Shown here: one piece after another, positions 4,025 through 62,288 of the stretch | How positions within the stretch are numbered: the stretch's first letter is position 1 | Layout: every line of letters starts with the position of its first letter | From: Physcomitrium patens | Taxonomy: Eukaryota > Streptophyta > Bryopsida > Funariales > Funariaceae | Reading direction: 5' to 3' | NCBI RefSeq assembly: GCF_000002425.4 | Contig: NC_037253.1 | Span: 10,965,065 to 11,029,064, forward strand | DNA: 64,000 nt | Notes under the pieces: model-generated | Told to the model about the DNA's origin: nothing | The model's input: the letters and a program-made list of their open reading frames with translations, nothing else | The model's database searches: none | Position numbers and translations under genes: made by a program

Positions 4025-4564
4025 TGTCATAGATATACTCATATAAGCTAGTAATTATATATACAAGTAGGTAATAGTAAATTAATTCTATAGTATTTAA
4101 TATGGAAGCTTCCTAAAAGCTTAATAGATGCTGTTTTGACTTCATAGGTATCTTTAATTGACTTTTTGGATTAAAAACATGGTCAACAAGTTGGCCATGT
4201 GCCACATATGTTGTTAGCTTGAAGATTAAGCTAATTATGTGGCCCACACGTAGAAAAACTTACCTTGTAAATTAAGGCATGTGTCCTACAAAGTCAACAC
4301 ATATTGGAGGTCCTATAGAACGTCGCCATATAGCCGCTTGTTAGATAGTATATATAGAGACAAGAATGAAGCCTTCTTCACTCTTGTCAACTCCTTTCTT
4401 GCTTCTAGTCTAGTTTCAAGGGTCTCTAGTTTTCTTGTCTTTTTGCAATAGCCATTTCAGTTTCTCTTTCAATATACATATTTATTTATTTATATTTTGT
4501 TGCCTTTCTTTGAGTGAAGGTCACTTGTCTGGATTGTTTTTTTATTGAATTCTTGTCCTTGACA
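4025..4564 (+). mobile_element. 3' LTR of family-A copy A0
   Basis: A 540-bp LTR starts TGTCATAGATATAC and ends TCCTTGACA. It aligns along its length with the A1 LTRs. It holds a TATATATA box (near 4352) followed by a hairpin whose arms read about GACAAGAATGAAG and CTTCACTCTTGTC. The second arm contains ACTCTTGTCAA (4379-4389), the segment complementary to the family-A primer site. The right flank (TAAAG onwards) belongs to other DNA. The 5' LTR lies left of the window. Confidence 0.93.
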
Positions 4565-15135: not shown

Positions 15136-15684
15136 TATCAAGAACAAAAATTCTATAAAAGCAAATAAATAAGTGAGATTTTTTCAAAGAAGTATGAAAA
15201 AATAGAAACAAGGAAGTATATATATTAAAAAGAAACTAGAATGACTATTGCCAAAAGTCAAAAAAACTATAGATTCTTTAAATTAGACTAAAAGCAAGAA
15301 AGAAGTTGATAAGAATAAAGAAAGCTTCACTCTTATCTCTATGTATACTATCTAACTATGAGCTACATGGCAACATTCTATAGGACCTTCAAAATATATT
15401 GACTTTACATAATGCATATTTTAACTTGTATGGCAAGTTTTTTATATCAATGCCATATAGTTAACTTGTTCTACAAGCTATCAACATTTATGGTATGTGA
15501 TTAACTTGTTGATGAAATTTTTAACCTATTAATTAATTATAAATACATGTAAAATCAAAGCGGCATTTATGAAAAATTTTAAAAATATTTTTTAGAAGAT
15601 ATTATGAAATTAATTTATATTTACTTACTTCTACCTATTCATATTACATAGATAATAATTACAATAAATATATATCTATGATAT
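15136..15684 (-). mobile_element. 3' LTR of family-A copy A5
   Basis: A 549-bp LTR in reverse orientation. Its + strand begins TATCAAGAACAAAAATTC (consensus TGTCAAGGACAAGAATTC) and ends ATCTATGATA. It keeps the TATA-proximal hairpin near 15308-15345. Its length equals that of the A2 5' LTR. It is followed on the + strand by A5's extra-ORF region. Confidence 0.9.
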
Positions 15685-15729
15685 TATTCCTTTGTCTAAG
15701 TACAAGTTCTATAAAGAGCGATAATCACA

Positions 15730-16131
15730 TATTGAGGAAGTCTAAGATGCAACAAATTGTATTTTGCCGCATACTCTAAGATAATTGATAGGTCCTCTCA
15801 GCCATCAATAATGTTACATTCGAAGATAAGAAGACCACCTTCTTATTTGATCATTGTTGAGACCTTCATAACTTCCTTCAAATAAAATATTTATAATACT
15901 ATATAGAGTTGTTCCTACCTCCAATAAAATCACCAAATATTAAGACTCCCTTCTCAAGTCGTGATATCAAACATGTTATATCTTGCCATGTATTTGAAGA
16001 AAAATATGTCATTCTTGAAGATCTTCATTTCTATTACGTCGTCTTAAAGGGTATCATAATTACAATGTCTTGTCCAATAAGTCAACAAATGATGGTTTTT
16101 GACTTGAATCTAATGGCTATTGTTTTTCCAT
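15730..16131 (-). pseudogene. Family-A extra ORF (A5 copy), decayed
   Basis: The minus strand from about 16131 to 15730 aligns with the 423-bp extra ORF of A0 and A1, between the chromodomain and the LTR. The start codon position, the segment equivalent to GRDxRCL-LEVGTT and the GHYRWLRGPI-like segment can be followed, with stops and small indels. A + strand open frame at 15909-16181 is the antisense of this region and is not a gene. Confidence 0.6.
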
Positions 16132-16279
16132 CTCTTTCACACTCTAATTATATAGAAGCTATAAACAAGACTAGAAGGTAGAATACAAGCATTTCTAAAT
16201 TGTGTTTCTTTTATAGCAAAGGTTTGCTATCCTTCATCTTGATTTTAATAGATGTCATTGATAAAAAGCATTGATCTTC

Positions 16280-19200
16280 TCTATTACATTATAAGACTTT
16301 ATGTTGACCCTCATATATGTTTGCTAATATTGTATCTATGTAAATGAATAAGATGTTCCAACCTAAGTTGATGCTATCTTAAGTCTAAGACTTCTTCCAT
16401 CTTAAGTTCTTCATTATTACCTGCTTCTAAAGGAGGTGGTGGTATTTGTCTTCTTTTTGAAATATTCACTATCTTATGTAGCTCTAAAACACATACATGA
16501 AATATGAGATGGATTTCTATAGACTTCAATAGATGTAATCAATAAGTGAGTAGATTGACTTATTTATAAATTGAAAATAGTTGAAGGCTATAGTAATCCA
16601 ATTTATTATAAGAGCAAATAGTTTTAATATTACAATGAAGTAATCATATCTTATTACCAACATAGAAATGACATTATTTTTTGTGATAGGCATCTACGTT
16701 GCTCTTTTATTATTCTTGAGCCTATTTTAGTTGAACTTTTATTATTGCATACATCTTAGTTAAATGATTTGTTAAATCTTTCTCCATGTAATTATCAACT
16801 TTTGAAAAGTCAAAAGTATCAAGTCATGGATGATAATCATAATTAGCAAAGAAAGATATTTATTATATAGAAAAATGTACCATATTATTATAAGCAAAAT
16901 TTGCCAATGGCAAAAGAATTATCCAATTATCTTATTGGTAGTTGATAGTCTACCTCAAATACTACTCTAAAATTTGATTTCATGCTTTATTTGTCCATTA
17001 TTTTGGAGATTGAAAGTCAAAGTTAGTTTCATGTCTACTTTTAAAATTTTAAAAATTATTTTCTAAAATCTTAATATAAACTAAATTTTTCTATTTGATA
17101 TAATATTTTTAAATAATCTATTATAGCAATAGATATTTTCAAAGAAAAGCTTGATTGTTTCTTCACTTGTGAAAGATTTTGTATATGGTACAAAATGTGC
17201 CATCTTAGTAAAACGATCTACTATTACAAATATAAAGTGATAAGAACTTAAAACTAGAAGATTAATAATAAAATTCATAGAAACAAAAGACCATGGTTGT
17301 TCTAGAATGTACAATGGCTAAAGAAGTTCATAAGATCAATGACAAGGAATTTTCGATCTTAAACAAATATCATAAGATTGTACAAAATCTTTTATTGCCT
17401 TCTATATTTAGAGCCACTAAAAATATTTAGATATTAGTTCAAAAGTCTTATTGTATCCAAAACATCTTGTTGTTGAAAGTTGTGAAAAGCATGAAGAACA
17501 CATAATTGAGCTTTATCTTCTAAAACATATAAGTGCCCCTTAAAATATAGTAGATTGTTCTTGAATTCAAACTTAAAAGTAACTTGAGACTTTAAAGGAT
17601 TTTTCTTGATATCACAAATAAGAATATTAAAAGAAATACTTACTTAATGAAAGTTGAATTAACAATTTGTGTTTATTTTTTTTTTTAAAGATGAAGATAT
17701 TTTAGTTTCAACAAAATTATTTGTTATTGATCAAAAGAAAAAAAAAAAATTATACAAAATAAGATTTTTTAGGAATTGCATGTAATAAACCTTGTTGTTT
17801 TTTTGTTTGATAAGTGATCTTAAATTTGAATCTTAACAAGGACCTACTCCAGCAAGCTTGGCAATGATTCAAAATATGTATTGACATAAAATATTTAAGA
17901 TTCTTTTGATTTATATATATAGTGACTAGATTAAGAGCGCCTTCTAGATAATGGCATTATTCTTCAAATAAATCTATGATTGCAAGAAGTTTTTATTATA
18001 GATCTTGTAGTTGATTTTAATTACTGAAAAAAATTTGGAATAAAAATTTACTAAGTGAATTTTATTATTTCTTTCTATTTATGATAATATGGCATCTATA
18101 GTAAAATCTATTATATTTTTTTCAATAAAAATGACTTAGAAAAGTCAATGTAATACAAAATTGATGCAAAAACAAAGTTCATCTTCAAAGCTTCAAATAT
18201 TACTCTCACTTCTTGCTTCTATTGAAGTTTGTTTTTACAAATCAAATGTATAAGTAGAGTTGCAACTTAAGAGAAGTTTTTAATAAAGATTTGATAATAA
18301 TTAGCAAATCTCAAAAAACATTGGATATCTCTTACCATTTTTGAGTTCTTTTAATCCATAATACTTTGAACTTTCTTGAGATCAATCATAAGTTTATCAT
18401 TTGAAATAATGTATTTTAAGAAGTCAACTTGAGTAGTGTGAAATATAAATTTATTTCATCTTAGTATAGAATCTCATATCTCTTAGTTTTTGTAATACAT
18501 GACAAACATAAAATTTATATTCTTTTGTGTTCTTAGAATAGATTAAAATGTCATTTAGATAACAAACAACAAAATTGTCAAATAATTCTCAAAAGACATC
18601 ATCCATTAGATGTTAAAAAGTTGTTGATACATTTGTAAGTCCAAAAGACATAATATTATATTCAAAATGTTTGTACTTGGTTCAAAATACAATCTTCTAT
18701 TCATCTCCTTCTTTGATATATATTAGACTGTATGTCTGTCATAGATCTATTTTTGTATAGATCCTAAACTAATTGAACTAATCAAAAAGTCTAGATATTA
18801 AAGGTAGTGGATACTTATTCTTGATGGTGATCTTGTTGAATCCTCAATAATCAATATACATCCATAATAATCCATCTTTTTTCTTTACAAATAAAATTGG
18901 AACTTTGCTGGAAATTTGAAATGGCATATGAAGTTCTCAAATAGATTCTCTTGAATATATTCTTTAAATTCAATCAACTCATTTTGTGATAAACTATAGA
19001 TTGGTCCAAATGGCAATTGAGTTTTTTGTAGAAGGTCAATTGAATAGTCATAGGAATGATGTTTTAGAAGAATATTTATATTTTTTTTTTCAAACATATC
19101 TTTAAAATCTTAATATTGGCTATGAATGCCATTTGAAGACTTTTCACTATTAGAAATAAATGTGGCATAAATGACATAAGGAGTTTTTTTTTGTAGCATA

Positions 19201-19740
19201 CAAAAAAGTTCTTGTAGTTAAAAATAAAAGTTTGGTTATAATAAGCTTATGAATTTTTATTTGATTAATTATATTTTTAATTATACTTTCAAAAAAGTCA
19301 AGATTACAAAAAATCTAATTTATTTGAAGATTATATTTTTTAACCACAATAAATCTAAAATGACTAAATTAAAAAGAGATCTTATGATATTAAATATTAT
19401 AAAACCACTATAACCATTAATTACTATTTTTAAAAGAAATGTTTCATAAATAATATCTATAAAAGAAAAATGAACCACTATCTATGACTTCTATATGAAT
19501 AAATTTATTTTCTTTATTAAAAATATGATATGTCTTTTAACAAATATTTTATTTAAAAAATAAGTTGAAGCTCTTAAATCAAGCAAGAAAAAGGCTTTGT
19601 GATATTAAGATTTTAAACTAATATCTATTATAAAACAAAGAGGAGATTTTGAAGAAAGAATAGAACCCTTATTATATTTTGTATAAGGTTTCAACCGCAT
19701 GATTTCTATTGTAGTTGGATAAAATTATTTTCTAACTTAT
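16280..19740 (-). pseudogene. Family-A copy A5: pol (protease to chromodomain), decayed
   Basis: On the minus strand the order from high to low coordinates is protease (about 19700-19200), RT start (19097-18885: IYSLSQNELIEFKEYI, then ENFICHFKFPA), RT core and RNase H (about 18880-17800), integrase (17660-16750) and chromodomain (about 16480-16300). Integrase shows VIVDRFTKMAHFVP and YNRLFKNIISNRK at 17314-17081. Stops are frequent throughout. The copy is clearly older than A1. Confidence 0.85.
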
Positions 19741-19749
19741 TGCCTTCTT

Positions 19750-19951
19750 TGATAGTCAAACTTCTCATTTTATGATTGTGTTGCTTCATTGAATAATATT
19801 GAATACTATGCTTTGATTTTTTTACAATATAAATACAATCCTTCTTTACAACAATAAGTATTTTCTTGCTCAGTGAGAAGTTTAAAATATATCACAATAA
19901 TTTATATATCCTCTACTTCTAAAGGTATGTATTGAAAAGTTATTAGTTTTG
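19750..19951 (-). pseudogene. Family-A copy A5: gag zinc-knuckle end, truncated
   Basis: The minus strand reads LLTEQEN-like residues and then a CCHC knuckle region equivalent to LCLYCGEPKHTAQHC of A1, ending with the shared CTACAATAG stop context. Gag is cut off at 19951, where the A3 LTR begins; the N-terminal part of A5 is not found in the window. Confidence 0.75.
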
Positions 19952-20340
19952 TGTCATGGATATACATAAATATTTTAATAAATATCTATATAATTAGATA
20001 GAAGTAAGTAAAAATAGATAAAAATAGATTAATTTAATAATACCTTCTAAACAGCTTCTTGAAAGCTTTATAGATATTACTTTTACTTTATATGTGTTTG
20101 TAGTTGATTAATAGATTAGAAACTTGGTCAACAAGATTACCACATGTTGGTAGCTTACAAAATAAGCTAACTATGTGAAGTAGATATAAAAAACTTGCCT
20201 TATAAGTTAAGATATGTGTCTTTTAAAATCAACTTATTTTAGAGGTTTTATAAGACATTGCCACATAGTTTTCAATTGAGAGTATATAGAGGCAAGAGTG
20301 AAGCCTTCTCCATTCTTTTCAATACCTTTGTGATCTTTAG
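19952..20340 (+). mobile_element. 5' LTR of family-A copy A3, left part
   Basis: It starts TGTCATGGATATACATA and aligns with the first two thirds of the other family-A LTRs. It stops at 20340 because copy A2 is inserted here. The remainder is at 35738-35881. The A2 target duplication is TTTAG (20336-20340) and TTTAT (35733-35737). It carries a TATATAGAGG box and a decayed hairpin. Confidence 0.9.
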
Positions 20341-20891: not shown

Positions 20892-20903
20892 TTGACAAGA
20901 GTG
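20892..20903 (+). other. Putative self-priming primer-binding site of A2
   Basis: TTGACAAGAGTG lies 2 nt after the LTR end. It is complementary to the R-region segment of the family-A LTR. No tRNA-like TGG-start primer site is present. Confidence 0.65.
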
Positions 20904-24956: not shown

Positions 24957-25904
24957 GGTAGTCATTTGGACAATTGTGGAGGACATTTTGCGAGTGATAG
25001 CACCGCACGTAAGGCTTTAATGGCTGAATACTGGTGGCCAATAATGTTTTTAGATACACACCAATATGTTTGTCATTATGATCCTTGTAAACGAATTGGT
25101 CGCCCTACTGGAACTTCTGCAATATCCTTGGTACCAATTTTGGCACAGGTACCATTCGAAAAATAGAATATTGACTTTGTCGGACCAATTGCACCTGCCT
25201 CTCAAAATGGACATAAAAATTATATTCTAGTAGCCACTGATTATGTCACCAAATGGGTAGAGGCCATGACAACAAAAACTGATAATGTCAATATCGTAGC
25301 AACATTTTTATATGAGAACATTATCACTCGTTTTGGCTGTCCGAAAGAATTGGTTAATGATCGCAACACACATTTTTTTAATGCCACAATTGAAGCATTA
25401 ACTGCAAAGTATGAGATCAAGCACCGCAAAACTACACCTTATCATCCACGAGCCAATGGGCAGATCAAAAAGACAAACGGTATCCTATACAAGATCTTAA
25501 CAAAGACTATTTCAGGAGCGGGAACCAATTCGGACACTAAATTGTTGGGAGCTTTATAGGCGTACCGTACTACATATAAAATAACTACCAATTCTATCCT
25601 ATTTCAATTAGTATACGGCCAAGAGGTAATTCTACCAATTGAATTGGAAGTCCAAAGTTTACAAATTGTATTGGATGAACCTATGAGAGACAAAAAATCT
25701 CTTCAATATAGGTTAGTCTAATTGGAAAAATTGGATGAAACTCGGACTACGGCTCCCTTGATCATGGAAGCTACACAGTGCCACAAAAAGAGTTATTACG
25801 ACAGTAAGTTATGGCCAAAATATTTTATGCCCAATGATTTGGTGCTACTTTATGATAGCCGCTTTAACAACTTTCCCAGTAAATTTCAAGTACGATGGCA
25901 TGGG
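24957..25904 (+). pseudogene. Family-D copy D1: integrase, 5' truncated
   Basis: Athila/Tat-like integrase begins inside the zinc domain (HLDNCGGHFASD, YWWPIMF). It continues through the core (NIDFVGPIA first Asp, LVNDRNTHF second Asp) to the C-terminal part (LEVQSLQIVLDEP, YFMPNDLVLLYDSR). The expected catalytic Glu of NGQxE is Lys (AAA at 25467-25469). Stops are at 25164-25166 and elsewhere. The D1 LTR, gag, protease and RT are missing upstream. The frame is interrupted at 25904 by element A1 and resumes at 32290. Confidence 0.88.
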
Positions 25905-26465
25905 TGTCACGGCCATAATCATGTAAGTTAATAATTACATATAGAAATAGGTAGAAGTAAGTAAAAGTAGATAAAAGTAAGTTAATTCTATAATATTTAA
26001 TATAGAAGCTTCCTAGAAACTTCCTAGACACTGCTTTGACTTCATAGGTGTCTTTAATTGACTTTTTGGATTAGAAACGTGGTCAACAAGTTGGCCATGT
26101 GCCACACATGTTATTAGCTTGAAGATCAAGCTAACTATGTGGCCCACACGTAGAAAAACTTGTCTTGTAAGTCAAGGCATGTGTCCTACAAAGTCAACAC
26201 ATATTGGAGGTCCTATAGAACGTCGCCGCGTAGCTCCTAGTTAGATAATATATATAGAGACAAGAGTGAAGGCTTCTTCACACTTGTCAACTCCTTTCTT
26301 GCTTCTAGTCTAGTTTCAAGGGTCTCTAGTTTTCTTGTCTTTTGGCAATAGCCATTCTAGTTTCTCTTTTCAATATACATACTTATTATTCATATTTTGT
26401 TACTTTTCTTTGAGTGAAGGCTTACTTGTCTGAACTGTTTTTTCATCAAGTTCTTGTCCTTGACA
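25905..26465 (+). mobile_element. 5' LTR of A1 with promoter
   Basis: It starts TGTCACGGCC and ends CTTGACA. TATATATA at 26249-26256 is a plausible TATA box and would place the RNA start near 26280. Directly after it lies an inverted repeat, GACAAGAGTGAAG and CTTCACACTTGTC (consensus CTTCACTCTTGTC), with a 4-nt loop. The second arm coincides with the predicted RNA 5' end. Confidence 0.93.
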
Positions 26466-26467
26466 GA

Positions 26468-26478
26468 TTGACAAGAGT
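26468..26478 (+). other. Putative self-priming primer-binding site of A1
   Basis: TTGACAAGAGT starts 2 nt after the LTR. It is exactly complementary over 11 nt to ACTCTTGTCAA in the 3' LTR (32099-32109) and, with one mismatch, to 26279-26289 in the 5' LTR. In Tf1 and sushi elements the first 11 nt of the RNA prime on such a site. Confidence 0.7.
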
Positions 26479-26677
26479 ACACTTACAATATCAGAGCTTT
26501 GTTTTTTCTTGAGTAAGAGTGGATTACCCCTTTCTCTTGACAAGACATAAGCGTATTAGAAGTTTGTGGATTACCCACTTCTAAACTGATATTGTTCTTA
26601 GTATCTTCTTTGTTCTCAAGTCTTTCTTTTCTTTTGTCTTGAGCAATATCAAACAAATTTTTCTTCTTAGTGTCATT

Positions 26678-27682
26678 ATGGCAGAGCTTGTTGAAATGAA
26701 GAGTGCAATGGCACAAATGCAAGAGCAAATGAGGGAGTTAATGCTTGCGATGCATCAACTCAATTCACCAACACAGGAAAGAACAAGAATAGCAGAAAGT
26801 GGGGATATAGAGATGATCGGAGCTGCTTCAACATCTACAACAAATCATGTTCTTTCTCCAATTGTACAACACCCTATAAGCACTAGAGAACCAAGAATTG
26901 CCTTACCTGAGAAATTTGATGGTACGAGATCAAAGTTTTGAAGGTTCATCAATCAAGTACAATTGGCAATTGAACTTCAACCGCAAAGCTATCTAACTCT
27001 AGGATCACAAGTCAGGTTTATTGGCACTCTACTTTCTGGTTCTGCATTATCGTAGTTTTCGTCTTTTCTTGAACAACGAAATCCAATATTGGAAAATTTG
27101 GAAGCTTTTTTGGCGGAGTTTCGATCTATGTATGGTGAATACGATGCAACTCGTGTTGCAACAAATAAGATCCAAATTCTGCGACAAAGAAATTGCTTAG
27201 TAACAGTATATGCTTCACAATTTCGACAACTTGCAATTGACATTAAGTGGGATGATGCTGCACTCATCAGTCAATTTTTTTATGGATTGCAATACGAAGT
27301 AAAGAAATTGATGCTGAACTTACCTGATCCTCAAACTTTGAGTCAAGCAATCGATTTTGCGGTAAAATGTGATAATCGACTTTTCGAATTTCGATCCGAG
27401 AATCATTCACGGGAACCTCAACGTTATTACTCAATGGCAACATCAACATCTTTGCCAAACGTACATTCGGAAGTAGAAGACATGCAAATTGACGCGGTAC
27501 GTTTTAAACCCCTAACTGAGCAAGAAAAGATTCGTCGTCGTCAAGAAGGATTATGTTTATATTGCGGAGAACCTAAGCACACTGCTCAACATTGTCCAAA
27601 TAAAAGACGCAACTATAAAATGGAGGGTACGACGGTCAAAGAAGACAACATGTTGGAAAACGGATTCGTCCAGCTACAATAG
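26678..27682 (+). pseudogene. A1 gag (capsid and CCHC nucleocapsid)
   Basis: The ATG at 26678 gives MAELVEMKSAMAQMQEQM, a helical Met/Glu-rich start. Capsid follows: LPEKFDGTRSKF, QVQLAIEL and later QILRQRNCLVTVYASQFRQL with FFYGLQ. The nucleocapsid has one knuckle, CLYCGEPKHTAQHC (CX2CX4HX4C). Stops interrupt it at 26939-26941 (TGA, probably from an Arg CGA, also present in A2 and A3) and at 27054-27056 (TAG for Trp). The terminal TAG is at 27680-27682. Gag would form the particle and bind RNA. Confidence 0.93.
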
Positions 27683-30600
27683 GGACCGTGCAGCTGGAAC
27701 CTTATACAATTCCTAATAAAGGTCCTATCCTCTCCTCAGAACCCTCTCCTTGTTTTATAATAGACTTATATTTAGGACCTAAGAATTACAAAGCCTCTGC
27801 TTTATTAGATTCGGGAGCCTCAGCATGTTTTTTAGATGAACAATTTGTTAAAAGTCGTAAAATACCTTTTATACAGAAACCTAAACCAGTACATGTAGAA
27901 GTCATAGATGGTCGTCCCTTGTCTTCTGGAGATGTCACTCATGAAACTCATCCTATAAAAGTAACAATAGACGGTCATGATAGCTACATAGCTTTTAACA
28001 TAATTAAATCCCCGTTCAATCCAGTTATTTTAGGTTTATCCTGGCTAGAAAAATATAACCCTCGAATAGATTGGAATTCGCATAAACTTGACTTTTCCCA
28101 AAGTATTATTAATAGTTCTACCAACCAAGTAAAAAATTATAAGTCTAGTATAGTAAAACCCGTATTGATAGGTGCAAAAGCATTTATACATGCAGCAAAA
28201 GAAGGATCAACTTTTGCTATTTATGCTGCACCTATTTCTGAAAACGTAAAGACTTCAAGTAGCATTCCAAGTCAATATCAGGAGTATCAAGACGTTTTTG
28301 AGAAAAAGAATGCAGATATTCTTCCTGAGCATCGTCCATATGATTGTTCAATCGACCTCAAGGAAGGAACTCAGCCACCATTTGGACCAATTTACAGTTT
28401 ATCGCAAGATGAGATGGCTGAACTCAAGACATATATTGACGAGAATTTAGCGAAGAATTTCATACGCCATTCAAAATCTCCAGCAAGAGCTCCAATTCTA
28501 TTCGTAAAGAAAAAAGATGGATCTTTACGAATGTGTGTTGATTATCGAGGACTCAATAAGATCACAATCAAAAACAGGTATCCATTACCTTTGATATCAA
28601 GACTCCTTGACCACTTGAATCAAGCTAAGATCTATACAAAAATAGATCTAAGAGGAGCATATAATCTAGTACGGATCAAAGAAGGAGATGAATGGAAGAC
28701 TGCGTTTTGAACCAGGTATGGACATTTTGAATATAATGTCATGCCCTTTGGACTCACGAATGCACCAACTGCTTTTCAACATCTCATGAATGATGTATTT
28801 CGTGAATTCTTAGACAATTTTGTCGTCTGCTATCTAGACGATATCTTGATCTATTCTAAGAACGTCGAAGAACATGAAATACATGTTCGTCAAGTATTAC
28901 AAAAACTTAGAGATGCAGGATTGTACGCCAAGATGGAAAAGTGTGTATTTTACACTACTCAAGTTGACTTTTTAGGATACATCATTTCAAATAATGGTCT
29001 CATGATGGATTCTAAGAAAGTCCAAACAATCATGGATTGGAAGATTCCAAGGACACTAAGAGATGTCCAATGTTTCTTGGGATTTACCAATTATTATCGG
29101 ATCTTCATCAAAGATTTCTCACGAGTTGCAGCTCCACTTACACGCTTGACTAGTAAAGATAAATTCCAATGGAATCAAGAAGCGGAAGCAGCATTTGAAG
29201 CCTTGAAGACATCGTTTGTCTCTGCACCAGTCTTATATCGTGTTGACTTTTCCAAGGCATTTTTTATGGAAACAGATGCATCAGATTTTGCCTTAGGTGC
29301 AGTTTTATCACAAATGGGAACAGATGACAAACTTCATCTGATAGCTTTTCATTCAAGAAAATTCTCAGTAACCGAGATCAATTATGAGATCCACGATAAA
29401 GAACTTCTTGCGATCGTGGATTCCTTTCAAGAATGGCGTCATTATCTAGAAGGCGCTTCTAGTGCAGTCACTGTGTATACAGATCACAAGAACCTCGAGT
29501 ATTTCATGTCAGCACGCATGTTGAATCGTCGTCAAGCTCGTTGGCGTATGTCTTTGTCAAGATTCGAGTTCATTATCACTTATCGGCCAAGAAAATAACA
29601 AGGTTTGTCTGATGCCCTATCTAGACGTTCTTATTTTGCACCAAAAGAAGGAGATGCAGCTTTTGAGCAACAAAGAACGGTCCTCTTGAAACCGGAGTAA
29701 TTTCATCTCCGAGCAATGAAATCAACATTGACTGTTGATTCAACTTTTCTCAAGCAAATCCAGTCCAGTATGTCCTCAGATCCTCTTGTTTTTGATATCG
29801 AGAATAATTCTTCCAAGTCTCATGATCCTTCTAAGTTCGAGTTCAAGAATAATCTATTATATTTTGAAGGACGCCTATATGTTCCAGAAGGAGAAGCACG
29901 TTTACGTGTTCTTCAAGCACGTCATGACTTTCCAGCAGCAGGGCAATTTGGATATAATAAGACTTTGGAACTCATATCAAGAGATTTTTGGTGGCCACAA
30001 ATGTGGAAGTCAGTCAAAGACTTTGTACAATCATGTGATATTTGTTCAAGATCAAAAATTCCTCGTCATCGACCTTACGGACTTCTTCAGCCATTACCTA
30101 TATCAGAACAACCATAGTCTTCTGTTTCTATGGATTTCATCACAGATCTTCCAAGCTCAAGATCTTATGATTCTATATTTGTGATAGTAGATCGTTTCAC
30201 CAAGATGGCACATTTTGTGCCATGTACAAAATCTATCACAGGTGAAGAAACAGCTAAGCTTTTCATTGATAATATCTATCGCTATCATGGATTACCTAAA
30301 GATATCATATCGGATAGGGGAACTCAATTTGTGTCAAGATTTTGGAAGACCCTTTTCAAGATTTTAAAAGTGGACATAAAGCTATCTTCGGCTTTCCATC
30401 CTCAAACTGATGGACAAATAGAGCGCGTAAACCAAGTCTTGGAGCAATATTTAAGGTGTACTATCAACTACCAACAAGATGATTGAACAACCCTTCTGCC
30501 ATTGGCAGAGTTTGCTTATAATAATATGGTACATTCTTCCACGCAACAAACACCTTTCTTTGCCAATTATGGCTATCATCCACGACTTGATACTTTTGAT

Positions 30601-31165
30601 TTTTCAAAAGTTGATAATCCTGCAGCAGAAGATATGGCAAATCGGTTGTCAGAGTTATATGCAATAATGAAGACGCAATTGAAGGAAGCTCAAGAACGAC
30701 AAAAGATAAACGCAGATCTATATCGTAAGGAGCAACCACAACTCAACGTGGGTGATAAGGTATGGCTACTTCGTCGCAATATCAAGACTACTCGACCTTG
30801 TGATAAGTTGGACTATCGTAGGCTTGGCCCCTTTTCTGTTTCTGAACAGATCAACCCAGTTACATCTACCGGAGTCAATGAAGATCCATCTTGTATTCCA
30901 CGTGTCTCTTCTTGAACCATATAAGACAGTGGATATACAAGGAAGAAGACAAATGCCACCACCTCCTATAGAAGTAGATAATAATGAAGAATTTGAGGTG
31001 GAAGAGATATTAGACTCAAGGCGGCGCCGAAATAAGCTGGAATATCTTGTTCATTGGCACGGATATGATATTAGTGAACGCACATGGGAGCCATCCAGGA
31101 ATCTAGCAAATGCATCAGCTAAAGTCAAAGTTTTTCATCAACGACATCCATCAAAACCAAGATAA
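27619..31165 (+). pseudogene. A1 pol: protease, RT, RNase H, integrase, chromodomain
   Basis: The frame is -1 relative to gag and overlaps it by 64 nt (27619-27682). Protease has LLDSGASACF (Asp codon at 27808). RT has [16 protein letters not shown] and YLDDILIYS (28831 onward). RNase H has ETDASDFALGAVLSQ and [10 protein letters not shown]. Integrase keeps ARHDFP, CDICSRSK, MDFITDL, IISDRG and a Glu at 30421-30423. The chromodomain is FEVEEILDSRRRR to TWEPSRNL. Stops are at 28708, 29596, 29698, 30115 and 30484; each is one C-to-T or G-to-A change from Arg, Gln or Trp. An 11-bp deletion near 30859 shifts frame before the chromodomain. A0 retains those bases. Confidence 0.95.
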
Positions 31166-31259
31166 AAATCTCTCTTATAAAAGAGACAAGATTGAGGCAA
31201 GATAACATTCAATTTCCTATCCTTGTTTGTAACTTCTTTGCATTTGTGACGCTAATTAG

Positions 31260-31682
31260 ATGGAGAGCCAACAACCAGCGGATTTAACTCAAGAACCTTT
31301 GTTTGCTGACCTGCCGGACGAGACATTACGATTGTCACAACCTTCAAGACGACGCAATCGAGATGAAGATCTTCAAGAATGACATGTTCTTCCTCGAATA
31401 GATGGTGAGATACAACGCGTTTGGTATCACGATTTGGGAAGGGACTCCCGATGTTTGGTGATTTTGCTAGAGGTAGGAACAACTCCTGATGGTGTTTCGA
31501 ATATTCTATTCGAAGGAAGTTACAAAGGCCTCAACAATGATCAAATAACTGGGTGGTCTTCCCGCCCTGGTATGGGACACTATCGATGGTTGAGAGGCCC
31601 TATCAATCATCTTCGAAGAGAACAGAGATCAAAGTATGTGGCGAATACAATTCGTCGCATCATAGATTTCCTCAACATATGA
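31260..31682 (+). pseudogene. A1 extra ORF after the chromodomain, unknown function
   Basis: A 140-codon frame starts with ATG 94 bp after the pol stop and ends TGA 27 bp before the polypurine tract. One stop, TGA at 31380-31382, replaces CGA of A0. Features: an acidic/Leu N-terminus (FADLPDETLRLSQ), a basic patch (RRRNRDEDLQE), then VWYHDLGRDSRCLVIL, a middle LEVGTTPDG and ILFEGSY, GHYRWLRGPINHL, RREQRS and a hydrophobic end IIDFLNI. Conserved position, length and reading frame across copies suggest it was translated. I do not recognise a family. It is unlike env proteins: no signal peptide or transmembrane segment is visible. Confidence 0.72.
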
Positions 31683-31709
31683 TGACCGCTCCTCGTGGAA
31701 CTCGTCTCT

Positions 31710-31720
31710 AGAAGGGGGGG
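31710..31720 (+). other. Polypurine tract of A1
   Basis: AGAAGGGGGGG, then TAA, then the 3' LTR at 31724. Confidence 0.85.
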
Positions 31721-31723
31721 TAA

Positions 31724-32284
31724 TGTCACGGCCATAATCATGTAAGTTAATAATTACATATAGAAATAGGTAGAAGTAAGTAAAAGTAGATAAAAGTAAG
31801 TTAATTCTATAATATTTAATATAAAAGCTTCCTAGAAACTTTCTAGACACTGCTTTGACTTCATAGGTGTCTTTAATTGACTTTTTGGATTAGAAACGTG
31901 GTCAACAAGTTGGCCATGTGCCACACATGTTGTTAGCTTGAAGATCAAGCTAACTATGTGGCCCACATGTAGAAAAACTTGCCTTGTAAGTCAAGGCATG
32001 TGTCCTACAAAGTCAACACATATTGGAGGTCCTATAGAACATCGCCACGTAGCCCCTAGTTAGATAATATATATAGAGACAAGAGTAAAGGCTTCTTAAC
32101 TCTTGTCAACTCCTTTCTTGCTTCTAGTCTAGTTTCAAGGGTCTCTAGTTTTCTTGTCTTTTGGCAATAGCCATTCTAGTTTCTCTTTTCAATATATATA
32201 CTTATTATTCATATTTTATTACTTTTCTTTGAGTGAAGGCTTACTTGTCTGAATTGTTTTTTCATCAAGTTCTTGTCCTTGACA
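31724..32284 (+). mobile_element. 3' LTR of A1
   Basis: 561 bp, the same length as the 5' LTR. It contains the TATA box near 32068 and the hairpin with arms GACAAGAGTAAAG and CTTAACTCTTGTC. ACTCTTGTCAA at 32099-32109 is the perfect complement of the primer site at 26468-26478. Confidence 0.95.
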
Positions 32285-32289
32285 ATGGG

Positions 32290-32403
32290 CCATATCGGGT
32301 GGTGAAAGGTTTCTCTAATGGTTCAGTTCAATTGAAAGATTTTCTGGGAACCCACTTCATAACTTACGTTAATGGAAACCGATTATGTCTATATTATACG
32401 TAA
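32290..32403 (+). pseudogene. D1 integrase C-terminal end after the A1 insertion
   Basis: It continues the D1 frame: PYRVVKGFSNGSVQLKDF, then a C-terminus ending LCLYYT and TAA. It parallels 59360-59472 in D2. About 340 bp without a recognised gene follow before the 3' ORF (32404-32741). Confidence 0.88.
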
Positions 32404-32741
32404 ACTCGGGACGAGTTTACTCAGTGGCGAGAGGGAGTCTCCATAATAATGATTATCTGACAGGATTGAAAAGGTTATGATAGCTAGAAAACGATTGATG
32501 GTTAGTTTTGGGTACTAAAACTGACTAGTCAAGAAATTAGACATTCTTGATTAGACATGAGAATAAGGTACACTGGATTAGATGTTCTTGATTTGGACCT
32601 CGAGTAAGTAGTTAGGAGCGGGGCACTCATAGAAGGTTTCATTGTTGTAAATTTCAGACATTGTGCTTTGAATTGTAAGCTTTATGACAGTAATCAGCAA
32701 TAGTGTTAGCGCAAGGAAGTATTGAGAGTTTCATTTTTACA

Positions 32742-34402
32742 ATGTCAACGGAAAGAGCGAAGAAAGCACCAGAACGATCGGAAAGTCATTGCAATGTGAG
32801 GTCTAAGTGCGATATGGGATCGCAATCTCTTGTAGTTATCACCACCATGGAACCGATGAAGTTAGATATCTGTTGGTCATTGAAAAAGGCAAAAAGATTT
32901 TAAAAATGTACAGTTATTTACGTTTTTGCGAGGATCGGATAAACTACTACAAATTGATGTAGAACGAGTGGCAGAATATATAGAAAATTATGATCCAGAG
33001 GATGGTTCGAGTGTGGTAAGAGGAGTCTTGATTGGGATAGATGAGAATATCTTATACAAGGTCTTGTATCTACTAACCGGAGAGCTTGAGGTAGGAGGAG
33101 ACTCGTCAAATGATTTCAGGCCATGAAGCTACTTCAAAGTAGAAATGTCGTCTCTCGAGCAAAATCAAGGATAGAAGGTACAAAAGGCACTTACGTCCGA
33201 ACTTATGGAATGGATGCGGTTCGTTCAGAAGCGGTTAGCATTGAATCGACATATCACCTACATAGCGAAGCGATTACTATTTTCCACGATAGGAACACTG
33301 GAAGGCATGGTATTCAATTGGGCAGTTTATGTGGCCACAAAGATACACGCAAAAATGGGAGCTAAGCAAAAGACGGAGAAGTTTGCTTCACTATTATGTT
33401 TCAATTATGTAAACTCAGTGATTGAGTATACATTGAAACAGGAATCTCAACCAGTAGTTCCAAGTTTATAAACGGGAACATTTAGTCTAGGAGTAATGGT
33501 GTATGAAGTGGGAGAATCCCGTACAGTTGCAGAACAAGAAGCAAGATCAATATCTACACCCCAGCGAGTTCCAATTTGGCCGATAATAGAGATGACAACA
33601 CTAATATCAATTCCAAAGAAAAACAATCAATTAGGATTTCAACGGGGTATAATAGAAGGGTGGAATCTTAAGGAAGTTATATTGGGTCAAATTTCTCAGC
33701 TGCAACTTACGGTGAGTAAGCTTGAAGATGAGGGTAGCTTAAAAAGGCAAGTAGAAGCGAGCAAGAAAATAATCTTGGATCAAAATTACAAAATCAGGGA
33801 ACACGAACAAGACATCAAGATAGAATCGAAATCCAAGATGCGAGTGAAGTATGAATTGGATGAGAAAGTGGAAAACTGGTCAAAGGAGAAATAGAGGATT
33901 CAGCATATCCTGAAAAATCAAAAGCAAGAATTACTACAAATTTGCAAATCATACAGATTGGAACATGAGAAGATGAACGCTGAGTTGAAGATGGAATAAG
34001 AGAAGAAGGAGGCATTGGAGCTTGAAAAGAAACAATTGGGTGACCAATATCGAAACAAAACGGATGAGCTACAGGTAGAAATTGTTGTTTTGAAGGAAAT
34101 AGTAATGAAATTGGAGAGTGATTTGATCAGTATTGGTCAGTCACAAACAATTGCCTCAATGAGAGTAAGAATTGGAAAATTGGAGGAGAAATTACAACAG
34201 GAGCAGCAACAATTGGAAGCTAAAGATGCTAGAAATCCTCCAATTGGAAGCTCAAGTTCAAGAATTGGGAGCCTATACTGAAGATTTAATATCTCAATTA
34301 AGGGCAGAGATTCAAGACAAGTTGAAGGAAGAAGATATAGTATTGGAACAAGACCAAATGGAGCCAGCGCTAGAAATCGAAGAGATTGAACAATCCAGTT
34401 AA
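32742..34402 (+). pseudogene. Family-D 3' ORF (D1 copy): plant transposon-protein-like region plus long coiled coil
   Basis: An extra ORF of about 550 codons lies downstream of integrase on the sense strand. It starts MSTERAKKAPERSESH. A central part has LRGSDKLLQIDVERVAEY, WMRFVQKRLALNRHITYI and ASLLCFNYVNSVIEYTL. The C-terminal third is rich in Glu, Lys and Gln with heptad spacing (SKLEDEGSLKRQVEASKKII, LEEKLQQEQQQLEAK). The central layout resembles the putative plant transposon protein (Transposase_32-like) region found in Tat/Athila 3' ORFs; I recall this rather than having tested it. An extra A near 32890 shifts frame, and stops occur near 33124, 33469, 33892 and 34000. D2 has the same ORF at 59811-61469. 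Confidence 0.75.
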
Positions 34403-34483
34403 AAAAAAATAAAAAAAAAAAGATTGGTTTTTGTTTATCAATACTGAGTTTGCGGAGATGTTGTTCAGTTAGGAGTGGGACTA

Positions 34484-34794
34484 TGTAGAATAAGTAGTTA
34501 TTTTACATAATGAAGATACCTAGTGTATAGTATAAACAGAGATAGATAACTACTGAAAAGGTGGTTTAGTAGGTAGAATGGATGAATAATGAGAAAAAGT
34601 AGTTATCATCTATAGTATAGGAATTGGTATCTCAGGGTAGTATAAAGAGGATGGGAGAGGGGAAGAAAATGCCAGACTGCGATAGTACTGAGCCAGGGAT
34701 AAGCTTGGTACTATCTCTTCTTCTTAGTTTTATTGTTTCTTTTCTGTTAGTATTTTTTTTTGAAGGTTTCTTCCAGAATAAATAAACAATTACA
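34484..34794 (+). mobile_element. 3' LTR of D1, internally deleted
   Basis: It starts TGTAGAATAAGTAG after an AGGAGTGGGA tract and ends CAATTACA. At 311 bp against 740 bp in D2, it lacks about 430 bp between GTTAGTATT and GAAGGTTTCTTCC. It is followed immediately by a reverse family-C LTR piece. Confidence 0.85.
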
Positions 34795-35305: not shown

Positions 35306-35732
35306 TAGTTAGAAACAAGTTTGTAGGTTAGAAACTTGGCAAAAAAGCTAACCATGTATTGGTAGCTTGTGGAACAAGTTATCTCTATTTAGTAGCTTAT
35401 AGAACAAGCCAACTACGTGGCACATACATAGATAACTTGCCTTGCAAGATAAGACATGTGGCTAGTAAAGTCAACAGATGTTGGAGGTCTTATAGGACAT
35501 TGCCACATAGCTTTTAGTTAGATAGTATATATAGAAGTAAGAATGAAGCCTTTTTCACTCTTATCAATATCTTTCTAGTCTTAGTCTTGTTTCAAGACTT
35601 TCTAGTCTTCTTGTTTTTGGAAATAGCCATTCTATTTAATATTACATCACCTTTTGAGTGACTTTCTAATTCTCTTCAATAATAGAAGAGTGTATTGAGG
35701 ATTCTCTTTCTTTGAGATTCATGTCCTTAACA
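35306..35732 (+). mobile_element. 3' LTR of A2, 5' truncated
   Basis: It joins the end of the extra ORF at a short shared CATAGTT, losing about 120 bp of LTR and the polypurine tract. The rest aligns with the A2 5' LTR and ends CCTTAACA. CACTCTTATCAA is at 35556-35567. The TSD TTTAT follows. Confidence 0.88.
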
Positions 35733-35883: not shown

Positions 35884-35895
35884 TTGATAAGAGTG
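35884..35895 (+). other. Putative self-priming primer-binding site of A3
   Basis: TTGATAAGAGTG, 2 nt after the LTR, as in A1 and A2. Pairing with A3's own decayed R segment (CATTCTTTTCAA near 20311) is 10 of 12. Confidence 0.55.
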
Positions 35896-59121: not shown

Positions 59122-59125
59122 GCGT

Positions 59126-59472
59126 TGGATGAACGTATGGGAGATAGAGAATCTCTTCAATATAGGTTAGTCTAATTGAAAAAATTGGATGAAACTCGGG
59201 CTACAGCTCTCTTGATCATGGAAGCTATACAGTGCCGCAGAAAGAATTATTATGACAGTAAGTTACAGCCAAAATATTTTATGTCCAATGATCTGGTACT
59301 ACTTTATGATAGCCGCTTTAACAACTTTTCTGATAAATTTTAAGTACGATGGCATGGGCCATATCGGGTGGTGAAAGGTTTCTGTAATGGTTCAGTTCAA
59401 TTAGAAAATTTTTTGGGAACCCACTTCATAACACTTGTTAATGGGAATCGATTACGTCTATATTATACATAA
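59126..59472 (+). pseudogene. D2 integrase C-terminal part after element B
   Basis: It continues the D2 integrase: LDERMGDRESLQYRLV, LEKLDETRATALLIMEAIQ, KYFMSNDLVLLYDSRFNN, WHGPYRVVKGF and a terminal LRLYYT before TAA at 59470-59472. Stops occur at about 59174 and 59341. About 340 bp without a recognised gene follow before the 3' ORF (59473-59810). Confidence 0.88.
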
Positions 59473-59810
59473 ATCCGAGATATGTTTACTCAGTGGCGGG
59501 AGGGAGTCTCCATAATAATGATTATCCGACAGGATTGAAAAGGTTATGATAGCTAGGAAACGATTGATGGTTAGTTTTGGGTACTGAAACTTACTAGTTA
59601 AGAAATTAGACATTATTAATTAGACGTGAGATTAAGGTACACTGGATTAGACGTTCTTGATTCGGATCCTGAGTAAGCAGTTAGGAGCGGGGCACTCATA
59701 GAAGGTTTCATTGTTGTAAATTTCAGACATTGTTCTTTGAACTTTAAGCTTTACGACAACAATCAGCAATAGTATTAGCACGAGGAAGTATTCAGAGTTT
59801 GATTTTTACA

Positions 59811-61469
59811 ATGTCGATAGAAAGAGCGAAGAGAGCACCGAAACGATCGGAAAGTCATCGCAATGTGAGGTCTAAGTGCGATCTGGGATCGCGATCTCTT
59901 GTAGTTATCACTAACATGAAACTGATGAAGTTAGATATCTATTGGTCATTGAAAAGGCAAAAAGATTTTAAAAATGTATAGTTATTTACATTTTTGCGAG
60001 GATCGGATAAACTACTACCAATTGATGTAGAACGAGTAGCAGAATATATAGAAAATTATGATCCAGAGGATGGTTTGAGTGTGATAAGAGGAGTCTTATT
60101 TGGAATAGATGAGAATATCTTACACAAGGTCTTACATTTATCATCCGGAGAGTTTGAGGTGGGAGGAGATGAGTCAAATGACTTCAGGCCAAGAAGCTAC
60201 TTCAAAGTAGAAATGTCATCTCTCGAGCGAAATCAAGGATAGAAGGTACAGGAGGCACTTACGCCCAAACTTATAGAATGGATGCGATTCGTTCAAAAGC
60301 TGTTAGCATTGAATCAGCATACCACCTACATGGCGAAGCGGTTATTGTTTTCCACGATAGGAACAATGAAAGGCATGGTATTCAATTGGGCAGCTTATGT
60401 GGCCACAAAGATATATGCAGAAATAGGAACTAAGCGGAAGACAGAAAATTTTGCTTCACTATTATGTTTCAATTATGTAAACTCAATGATTGAATATACA
60501 TTGAAATATGAATCTCAACCACTAGTTCCAAGTTTACAAATGGGAATAGTTAGTCTAGGGATAATGGTGTATGAAGTGAGAGAATCCAGCAGAGCAGTAG
60601 AATAAGAAGCAAGACCAATATCTATACTAGAGCGAGTTTCAATTCAATCGACAATAGAGATGACAACACCAATACTAGTTCCAAGGGGAAGCAACCAATT
60701 AGGGTTTCAATGGGGTGTAACAAAAGGGTGGAATCTTAAAGAAGTTATATTAGGTCAAATTTCTCAGCTGCATCTTACGGTGAGTAAGCTCAAAGATGAG
60801 GGTAGCTTAAAAAGGCAAGTGGAAGCGAGCAAGAAAATAATCTTGGAGAAAAATTGTAAAATCAGAGAATACGAACAAGACATCAAGGTAGAATTAAAAT
60901 CCAAGATGCGAGTGAAGCGTGAATTAGATGAGAGAGTGGAAAACTGGTCAAAGGAAAAACAGAGGTTTCAGCATATCCTAGAAAATCAAAAGCAAGAATT
61001 ACTACAAACTCGCAAATCATACAGATTGGAACAAGAGAAGATGAACGCTGAGTTGAAGATGGAATAAGAGAAGAAGGAGGCATTGGAGCTTGAAAAGAAA
61101 TAATTGGATGATCAATATCGAAACAAAATGGATGAGCTATAGGTAGAAATTGTTATTTTGAAGGAAACAGTAATAAAATTGGAAAGTAATTTAGTTAGTA
61201 TATGTCAGTCATAGACATCTATTTCAATGGGAGTAAGAATTGGAAAATTGGAGGAGAAATTGCAATAGCAGTAACAACAACTGAAAGCTAAAGATGCTAG
61301 AATACTCCAATTGGAAGCTCAGGTTCGAGAATTGGGAGCGCATAATGAAGATTTAATAGCTCAATTAAGGACAGAGATTCAAGATGAGTTGGAAGAAAAA
61401 GATATAGTATTGGAATAAGACCAAATGGAGCGAGCACTAGAAATTGAAGAGATTGAACAATCCAGTTAA
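59811..61469 (+). pseudogene. Family-D 3' ORF (D2 copy): plant transposon-protein-like region plus coiled coil
   Basis: One frame of 552 codons runs from ATG at 59811 to TAA at 61467-61469, broken only by point stops (first at 59979-59981) and without net frameshift. That makes it the better guide to the ancestral frame than D1. It contains LRGSDKLLPIDVERVAEY, WMRFVQKLLALNQHTTYM, KGMVFNWAAYVATKIYAEI and a heptad-rich C-terminal third (LKRQVEASKKIILEKNCKI, FQHILENQKQELLQTRKSY). It probably oligomerises through the coiled coil; the function is unknown. Tat/Athila elements often carry an extra 3' ORF. Confidence 0.8.
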
Positions 61470-61535
61470 AAAAAAAAAAAAAAAATGATTGATTTTTGTT
61501 TATCAATACTTTGTTTGCAGAGATGCTGCATAATT

Positions 61536-61545
61536 AGGAGTGGGG
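61536..61545 (+). other. Polypurine tract of D2
   Basis: AGGAGTGGGG, then CTA, then the 3' LTR. D1 has AGGAGTGGGA in the same place. Confidence 0.75.
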
Positions 61546-61548
61546 CTA

Positions 61549-62288
61549 TGTAGAATAAGTAGTTATTTTCAAAATGTAGATATCTAGTGTATAATACAAA
61601 TAAGGATAGATGACTGTTGAAAAGGTGGTTCAGTAAGTAGAATGGATGAATAATCAAGAAAAATAGTTATCATTCATAGTATAAGAATTGGTATCTCGGG
61701 GTATTATAAGGAGGATGGGAGGGAGGAAGAAAATGCCAGACTATAATAGTATTGAGCCGGAATAAGCTTGGTGCTATCTCTTCTTCTTAATTTTCTTGTT
61801 TCTTTTGTGTTAGTATTGATTCTAGTGAAGAGAATCGATTTAATGAATTAATGTTTGATTTACGAAGTTATTTACGGATCATTGTTTATCAATTTTTGTG
61901 AAAGATTGGTGATGTATGGAAGTTTTCAATCACTGTTTATTGCAAGGTTGTGAGTTTAGTGAAGAGAAATTGTAATCAAAGGAATTATCTTGATCAGATT
62001 TTGTAGATTGGAAGTTATTCATTCTAGGGTTTGGATTATGCTTATGTGTTCATGAATTACACAGGGTACTAAAATTGATATCGTAGTTGTTATCACATTG
62101 ATATGAGAGAGTGGATAGTAGGAAAAAAAGTTAAGTGTTCTTCGATATTATAAGCATTCAGCAGTAGCGGTTAATTGTGTGATCCTAACAATTAGAGCTC
62201 ATATACATGGTCTTTCCTTGTGTTTGAATTCTCCTATACGGGTTTATTCTGGGAGGTTTCTTCCAGAAGAAGTAAAACGATAATCACA
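61549..62288 (+). mobile_element. 3' LTR of D2
   Basis: 740 bp. It starts TGTAGAATAAGTAG and ends GATAATCACA, aligned with the 5' LTR throughout. Confidence 0.92.

What the first reader, a model, noticed from the sequence alone, without database searches (positions are those of the whole stretch)
26249..26478. Tf1/sushi-type self-priming signal in a plant chromovirus
Family A lacks a tRNA-type primer site. Two nucleotides after the LTR in A1, A2 and A3 lies TTGACAAGAGTG or TTGATAAGAGTG. The R region just downstream of the TATA box contains the complement. A1: 11 of 11 with the 3' LTR (32099-32109), 10 of 11 with the 5' LTR. A2: 11 of 12 with both LTRs. A3: 10 of 12. The segment sits about 32 nt after the TATA box, where the RNA should start, as in Tf1 where the first 11 nt of the RNA prime reverse transcription. 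I know of self-priming in fungal and vertebrate chromoviruses, not in plant elements.
Basis: partly seen in the sequence, partly recalled or inferred. Interest (0 to 1): 0.88.

Follow-up and report, generated by a model that had tools for sequence, protein, structure and literature searches.

The report
Self-priming signal in moss retrotransposon family
A very abundant jumping element of what is probably a moss genome carries, just after its first long repeat, an 11-base site complementary to the predicted first 11 bases of its own RNA, as in yeast Tf1, so it probably starts DNA copying from its own RNA end instead of a tRNA; this had already been predicted in print for this clade of moss elements.

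Summary
Element A1 (LTRs 25905-26465 and 31724-32284, duplication ATGGG) has TTGACAAGAGT two bases after its 5' LTR. The complement ACTCTTGTCAA lies in R, 31 nt after the TATA box: 11/11 in the 3' LTR, 10/11 in the 5' LTR. Genome-wide, 3006 oriented loci carry the exact R-LTR end-2 nt-PBS arrangement; the reversed pattern gives 0. Between two subfamily groups with different leaders, R and PBS keep 0.89 identity against 0.57 on average (0.88 in neutrally chosen copies). None of 45 sampled 5' LTRs has the TGG needed by a tRNA 3' end within 30 nt. Self-priming as in Tf1/sushi elements is the best reading.

Against it: no R/PBS covariation (p 0.41), as both sites hardly vary; the RNA start is inferred; plain folding favours the pairing in 23 of 45 copies and not in A1.

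It is not new for plants: Neumann et al. 2019 predicted self-priming for Tcn1-clade chromoviruses of mosses and club-mosses. The host is probably Physcomitrium patens and the family probably RLG1 (inference). A conserved U3/R hairpin that could hide the 3' primer copy is the freshest lead.

The parts
25905..26465 (+). A1 5' LTR (TGTCAC...TTGACA), 561 bp
   Evidence: (97.5% identical to 31724-32284)
31724..32284 (+). A1 3' LTR, 561 bp
25900..25904 (+). target-site duplication ATGGG, left copy
   Evidence: a paralogous stretch spanning the insertion point without A1 lies at 59125-61817
32285..32289 (+). target-site duplication ATGGG, right copy
26249..26256 (+). TATA box TATATATA, first T 31 nt before the self-primer
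   Evidence: by eye; distance 31 in 41 of 45 5' LTRs
26280..26290 (+). R segment, proposed self-primer and RNA 5' end (10 of 11 complementary to the PBS in this LTR)
   Evidence: the RNA start is inferred
32099..32109 (+). same R segment in the 3' LTR, 11 of 11 complementary to the PBS
26466..26467 (+). 2-nt spacer between LTR end and PBS
   Evidence: GA in 34 of 45 5' LTRs
26468..26478 (+). PBS TTGACAAGAGT, complementary to R
26259..26288 (+). hairpin at the U3/R border: left arm 26259-26271, loop 26272-26275, right arm 26276-26288 overlapping the self-primer
   Evidence: z -3.0; 3' LTR copy z -3.3; 79 distinct LTR segments average 11.5 of 13 paired
26489..26497 (+). TATCAGAGC, 9 nt shared with the usual plant initiator-Met tRNA site; rejected as the PBS
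   Evidence: cross-group identity of 26487-26497 only 0.335 and 0.236; the TGG for the tRNA CCA end is missing
31710..31720 (+). candidate polypurine tract AGAAGGGGGGG, followed by TAA and the 3' LTR
   Evidence: by eye
27056..27682 (+). gag ORF piece (Retrotrans_gag)
27619..28710 (+). protease and start of RT; ends at an in-frame stop
28711..29598 (+). RT and RNase H piece
29701..30486 (+). integrase zinc-binding domain and core, split by a stop
30992..31144 (+). chromodomain with aromatic-cage residues
20714..20724 (+). A2 R segment, 10 of 11 complementary to its PBS
20892..20902 (+). A2 PBS
35557..35567 (+). A3 R segment (rearranged copy)
35884..35894 (+). A3 PBS
4380..4390 (+). R segment ACTCTTGTCAA in the 3' LTR of another family-A copy (LTR about 4025-4564)

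Best explanation
Family A is a Ty3/gypsy chromovirus of the Tf1/sushi-related Tcn1 type that primes minus-strand DNA synthesis with the 5' end of its own RNA. Shown: the 11-nt complementarity, its fixed place 2 nt after the LTR and 31 nt after TATA, its conservation, and the lack of a tRNA 3'-end site in the copies examined. Inferred: the RNA starts at the A of ACTCTTGTCAA; its first 11 nt fold back on the PBS; the element's RNase H cuts after about nt 11; RT extends the freed 3' end through U5. The last three steps are taken from Tf1.
For: PBS and R complementary and correctly placed in A1 and in 3006 oriented genomic loci against 0 for the reversed control (the tool calls its counts lower bounds); a further 101 loci carry the fully paired A-T variant. 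40 of 45 sampled 5' LTRs pair at 10 or more of 11 positions counting G-U, and 26 of 45 at 11. PBS position 12 is A in 34 of 45 while the base before R is C in 44 of 45, so complementarity mostly stops at the predicted RNA start. In 17 elements with paired LTRs, the 3' LTR R is ACTCTTGTCAA in 16, including the three whose 5' R has a mismatch, so those mismatches arose after insertion (two mispaired rows of 19 dropped). R 0.896 and PBS 0.886 cross-group identity against a mean of 0.566 (45 copies); 0.885, 0.881 and 0.568 in 22 copies (20 not chosen by the motif, plus A1 and A2), where the PBS is the best-conserved 11-nt window after the LTR, the next one not overlapping it being 0.789. TGG within 30 nt of the LTR in 0 of 45. 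Scrambling R in silico abolishes predicted R:PBS pairing (0.49 to 0.001). Chromodomain and RT/RH/IN content; the three rows of the 120 best RT hits that show an organism are fungal, e.g. Rhizopus delemar 60%.
Against: No covariation between R and PBS. Genome-wide 301 loci have the R-A/PBS-C mismatch against 101 fully paired R-A/PBS-T; the fourth cell, R-G/PBS-T, did not complete. In the subset of 20 (18 neutrally selected copies plus A1 and A2) only 2 are perfect Watson-Crick and 6 with G-U; many look decayed, but only some could be dated. L009-L048 were chosen for the motif, and all 45 passed a filter of at least 7 of 11 PBS matches, so PBS figures lean upward. The full pretzel structure is not established: an extra PBS-adjacent duplex appears in 17 of 45 forced folds. 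The unforced fold of A1 and A2 does not favour R:PBS (0.0 each), and the fold energy of the A1 leader is not below shuffles (z 0.26). RNA start unmapped.
Confidence: 0.82

Rival explanations
1. A tRNA or tRNA fragment primes: either initiator-Met tRNA at the displaced TATCAGAGC of subfamily 1, or an internal (half) tRNA at TTGACAAGAGT.
For: TATCAGAGC at 26489-26497 matches 9 nt of the usual iMet site (the iMet site is recalled). Half-tRNA priming is predicted for some plant Ty1/copia lineages (PMC6317226).
Against: The three bases that should pair with CCA are CAA, not TGG, and TGG occurs within 30 nt of the LTR in 0 of 45 copies. Subfamily-2 leaders lack the motif and the segment is poorly conserved between groups, 0.335 and 0.236. 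No tRNA set of this genome was obtained, so half-tRNAs were not excluded directly.
Confidence: 0.08
2. The R:PBS pairing is a real long-range RNA structure that closes the 5' UTR for packaging, dimerisation or translation control, but does not prime.
For: The leader repeats the same motif: a second TTGACAAGA at 26537-26545 in part of subfamily 1, with which R pairs in the plain fold of A1, and a PBS-like left hairpin arm at 26259-26271.
Against: It would leave the element without a known primer; the position just after the LTR and the 11-nt length at the RNA start are those of Tf1 (11 nt recalled; layout in PMC10085805 passages).
Confidence: 0.07
3. The match is a by-product of a hairpin or promoter palindrome: R is conserved because of the U3/R hairpin, and the PBS resembles it by descent or chance.
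For: The hairpin is strong and conserved, and the LTR end itself reads TTGACA.
Against: The PBS lies outside the LTR and is the best-conserved 11-nt window after it (0.881 against 0.789 for the next one not overlapping it); chance of an 11/11 complement in the LTR is about 3 in 5000.
Confidence: 0.03

Closest known systems
Tcn1-clade chromoviruses of Physcomitrella/mosses (PpatensLTR1/2; probably RLG1)
   Same: Chromodomain Ty3/gypsy element, high copy number; self-priming already predicted for the majority of the clade (PMC6317226; PMC2864245; PMC7466625; passages).
   Different: Nothing known to differ; identity with RLG1 rests on copy number, domain content and genome size, not on a sequence comparison.
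Tf1/Tf2 (S. pombe), Tj1 and sushi elements
   Same: 11-nt self-primer at the (here predicted) RNA start, PBS just after the 5' LTR, chromodomain in Tf1, Tf2 and Tj1 (PMC10085805).
   Different: Priming is shown experimentally in Tf1; the three-duplex pretzel (PMC10085805) is only partly visible here.
SM-Tcn1 of Selaginella
   Same: Same clade in a non-seed plant.
   Different: Its describers found neither a tRNA site nor self-priming (PMC2864245).
TAR lineage (Houba, Osr-1), Ty1/copia
   Same: Self-priming also predicted (PMC6317226).
   Different: Ty1/copia, not Ty3/gypsy; no chromodomain (recalled).

Membership tests
Tf1/sushi group (including Tcn1) | Ty3/gypsy pol with chromodomain | tested here: met
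   RVP_2, RVT_1, RT_RNaseH, Integrase_H2C2, rve, Chromo above their cut-offs; SH3_Tf2-1 just under its cut-off
Tf1/sushi group (including Tcn1) | RT groups with Tf1/sushi, not with seed-plant chromoviruses | tested here: inconclusive
   3 of the 120 listed hits show an organism, all fungal; most rows have no name; no tree built
Tf1/sushi group (including Tcn1) | PBS near the 5' LTR complementary to R, no tRNA 3'-end site | tested here: met
Tf1/sushi group (including Tcn1) | Self-primer is the exact RNA 5' end | not testable with these tools
   31 nt after TATA in 41 of 45 fits; no RNA data held
Tf1/sushi group (including Tcn1) | Three-duplex (pretzel) structure | tested here: inconclusive
   one PBS-adjacent duplex in 17 of 45 forced folds
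Tf1/sushi group (including Tcn1) | RNase H cleavage frees the primer | not testable with these tools
   biochemical; RNase H domain present
Plant Tcn1 clade | Chromodomain with aromatic cage | tested here: met
   F, W, Y of the query align with Y, W, Y of the chromodomain of PDB 2dnt; which positions form the cage is recalled
Plant Tcn1 clade | Host is a moss or club-moss | tested here: inconclusive
   470.4 Mb genome is nearest to P. patens (~480) among 16 mosses tabled in PMC13120521; no tool named the host
TAR (Ty1/copia) | Ty1/copia domain order | tested here: not met
   RT-RNase H precede integrase

The most novel reading that the evidence does not exclude
The U3/R hairpin is a self-discrimination device. 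The sequence GACAAGAGTGAAG between TATA and the RNA start pairs with R, but it is transcribed only at the 3' end of the RNA. There it hides the 3' copy of the primer sequence, so the PBS can pair only with the 5' end, which lacks that arm. This would solve a problem that every self-primed LTR element with R at both ends should face.
Probability: 0.2. Interest if true: 0.55.

Novelty: already known. Interest (0 to 1): 0.36.

Why it matters
Self-priming in plants has, in the papers I could see, been predicted but not shown. This family has thousands of copies with the exact signal in a genome that is probably that of a tractable moss, where the likely same family (RLG1) is transcribed in non-stressed protonema (PMC7466625). 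That makes the prediction directly testable from endogenous RNA and cDNA, and would show whether a fungal-like priming route works in a plant cell.

Tried and rejected
Covariation of R and PBS: none. Covariation of hairpin arms: p 0.21, Watson-Crick only p 0.05. Initiator-Met site: rejected. Relatives in viral contigs: no pattern match with the RT piece, 26 pattern matches but none confirmed with an RT alignment. tRNA genes in the window: none. The genome-wide 2x2 table is incomplete: G-C 3006, A-T 101, A-C 301; G-T was asked and never answered. One search counted the A-T pair without orientation or LTR end (171 loci). The regex that sorted leaders misfiled L074, moved by hand to subfamily 2. 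One sequence (L010) was cut at the wrong place and is not used. The R finder picked wrong stretches and was replaced. One search failed on a type error and was rerun. One search, a first conservation run on 29 copies, was superseded. Papers: PMC6317226, PMC2864245, PMC7466625, PMC4600332, PMC10085805, PMC3350952 and PMC11899658 seen as passages; PMC13120521 as passages and its figures-and-tables section; PMC3344888 in a search listing only; the Levin and Butler papers not seen (recalled or cited by others). The statement that the kind is known rests on passages found through searches; supplements of PMC6317226 could not be read, so whether this very primer sequence is printed there is unknown.

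Full report
What is there. A1 is an LTR element at 25905-32284 inserted with a 5-bp duplication ATGGG; a paralogous stretch that spans the insertion point without A1 lies at 59125-61817. Its LTRs are 561 bp and 97.5% identical. Its pol is split by several in-frame stops, so A1 itself is dead. Pfam finds gag, protease, RT, RNase H, integrase zinc-binding and core domains and a chromodomain. Of the 120 RT hits listed (of 7688), the three that show an organism are fungal (Rhizopus delemar twice, 60%; Endocarpon pusillum 56%); most rows carry no name. The chromodomain aligns with CDYL and HP1-type chromodomains, with F, W and Y at the cage positions (positions recalled).

The signal. The LTR ends TTGACA at 26465. 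Two bases later comes TTGACAAGAGT (26468-26478). Its complement stands at 26280-26290 (10 of 11) and, in the 3' LTR, at 32099-32109 (11 of 11). It starts 31 nt after the first T of TATATA, where a plant TATA promoter would start the RNA (typical spacing recalled). Shuffled LTRs reach 11/11 in 3 of 5000 cases, and none reaches 10/11 at that place.

Genome-wide. The window is a stretch of contig C1 of a 470.4-Mb genome. TTGAYAAGAGTG occurs 18176 times against 111 for the reversed pattern. The oriented pattern R, 145-175 nt, LTR end, 2 nt, PBS occurs 3006 times when exact and 0 times reversed. The fully paired variant with A in R and T in the PBS occurs 101 times, and the mismatched variant with A in R and C in the PBS 301 times; reversed controls are 0 in both. 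The R-G/PBS-T count did not complete. Of copies with A in R, 101 of 402 have T in the PBS; in my sample of 45, 10 of the 36 copies with G in R and C or T in the PBS have T. The conditioning differs, but nothing points to compensation.

Sample of copies. I fetched loci in two ways: around exact TTGAYAAGAGTG (L009-L048, biased for the motif) and around a neutral U5 anchor (L049-L108). With the window this gave 141 LTRs, 64 with a leader-like flank. I kept 45 whose PBS place matched TTGAYAAGAGT at 7 or more of 11 bases; 20 of them are 18 neutrally chosen copies plus A1 and A2. The filter favours a conserved PBS. In the neutral-plus-window part it dropped 10 of 30 listed rows: A3, LTRs whose flanks look unrelated, and two (L097, L098) that look like true 5' LTRs with a deletion at the junction. 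Pairing is 11/11 Watson-Crick in 20 of 45 (2 of 20), 11/11 with G-U in 26 of 45 (6 of 20), and at least 10 in 40 of 45 (16 of 20). Exchanging PBS sites between copies changes nothing (p 0.41 and 0.74), so there is no covariation. The variants at the two most variable pairs are mostly C-T and G-A changes. In 17 elements with both LTRs (90.9-99.4% identical) the 3' R is exact in 16, including the three whose 5' R is mutated (two of 19 rows paired neighbouring LTRs and were dropped). So these mismatches are decay after insertion.

Two subfamily groups. Group 1 (A1) and group 2 (A2, A3 and other copies) differ in leader and spacer (mostly GA against AT/GT). In a gapped alignment of 35 and 10 copies R scores 0.896 and the PBS 0.886 cross-group identity against a mean of 0.566 over 331 windows (ranks 17 and 24); the iMet-like TATCAGAGC stretch scores 0.335. 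With only the neutrally chosen copies and the window, L097 and L098 put back (13 and 9 copies), the figures are 0.885, 0.881, 0.568 and 0.236; the PBS is the best window after the LTR, and the next one not overlapping it scores 0.789 at 26517. Higher still are the U5 hairpin TGGCAATAGCCA, which was my anchor, and the bases just before R. PBS base 12 is A in 34 of 45 while the base before R is C in 44 of 45: in most copies complementarity ends where the RNA should begin.

No tRNA site. A tRNA 3' end needs TGG in the template. It is absent from the first 30 nt after the LTR in all 45 copies. The iMet-like stretch of group 1 lacks it, and group-2 leaders lack the stretch. Half-tRNA priming was not tested against a tRNA set.

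RNA folding. Unforced folding gives the R:PBS helix a mean probability of 0.49, at least 0.5 in 23 of 45 copies, and 0.001 after scrambling R. The window copies A1 and A2 score 0.0; in A1 the plain fold pairs R with the second TTGACAAGA at 26537-26545. The A1 leader as a whole is no more stable than shuffles. With R:PBS forced, a PBS-adjacent duplex with sequence just after the primer appears in 17 of 45. A pretzel structure like that of Tf1 is thus possible but not shown.

Hairpin at the U3/R border. Between TATA and R stands GACAAGAGTGAAG, which repeats most of the PBS in the same sense and makes a 13-bp hairpin with R. Its fold is clearly better than shuffles in four of the five usable window copies (z -2.5 to -3.7; the fifth -1.2). 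79 distinct segments average 11.5 of 13 pairs, without significant covariation. If the RNA starts at R, this hairpin exists only in the 3' copy. I propose that it hides the 3' primer copy; this is inference.

What is known. Neumann et al. [quoted passage not shown] P. patens elements PpatensLTR are placed in that clade (PMC2864245, passages), and PpatensLTR2 appears among the elements of a tree that includes Tf1 and sushi-ichi (PMC10085805, passages). RLG1 is the most abundant family of P. patens, with an integrase chromodomain and 5092 complete elements, transcribed in protonema (PMC7466625, passages). Genome size (P. patens ~480 Mb in the table), copy number and domains make P. patens and RLG1 the likely identity; no tool named the host.

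Verdict. Real, strong and functional-looking. Very probably self-priming, already predicted for this clade, so known in kind. 

Noticed in passing
26259-26288 and most family-A LTRs examined: A conserved 13-bp hairpin at the U3/R border whose left arm repeats most of the PBS and whose right arm contains most of the self-primer.
   Followed up: partly
26537-26545: A second TTGACAAGA in the leader of A1 and part of subfamily 1 (others have TTGATAAGA or further changes), about 70 nt after the PBS.
   Followed up: partly
26343-26354: Highly conserved small hairpin-like TGGCAATAGCCA in U5 of both subfamily groups; role unknown, and its conservation is overstated because it served as my anchor.
   Followed up: no
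26489-26497: TATCAGAGC, 9 nt of the usual plant initiator-Met site (recalled), about 23 nt after the LTR in subfamily 1 only; perhaps coincidence or a relic.
   Followed up: yes
25671-25904 and 32285-34754 versus 59125-61817: A1 is inserted into another repeat of which a second copy (about 89-90% identical) lies in the window; the 5-bp overlap of the two alignments is the duplication ATGGG.
   Followed up: partly
15138-19939 (minus strand): An older relative of A1 (about 72% identical) whose R reads ATTCTTATCAA.
   Followed up: no
19954-20340: A family-A LTR interrupted some 20-30 nt after its R segment by the start of the A2 LTR (about 20341).
   Followed up: no
L027, L058-L063, L065, L068: Similar family-A LTRs with the same 3' flank CATCCTTTCC at nine places in C1 1.94-2.42 Mb: perhaps an LTR carried inside another repeat.
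   Followed up: no
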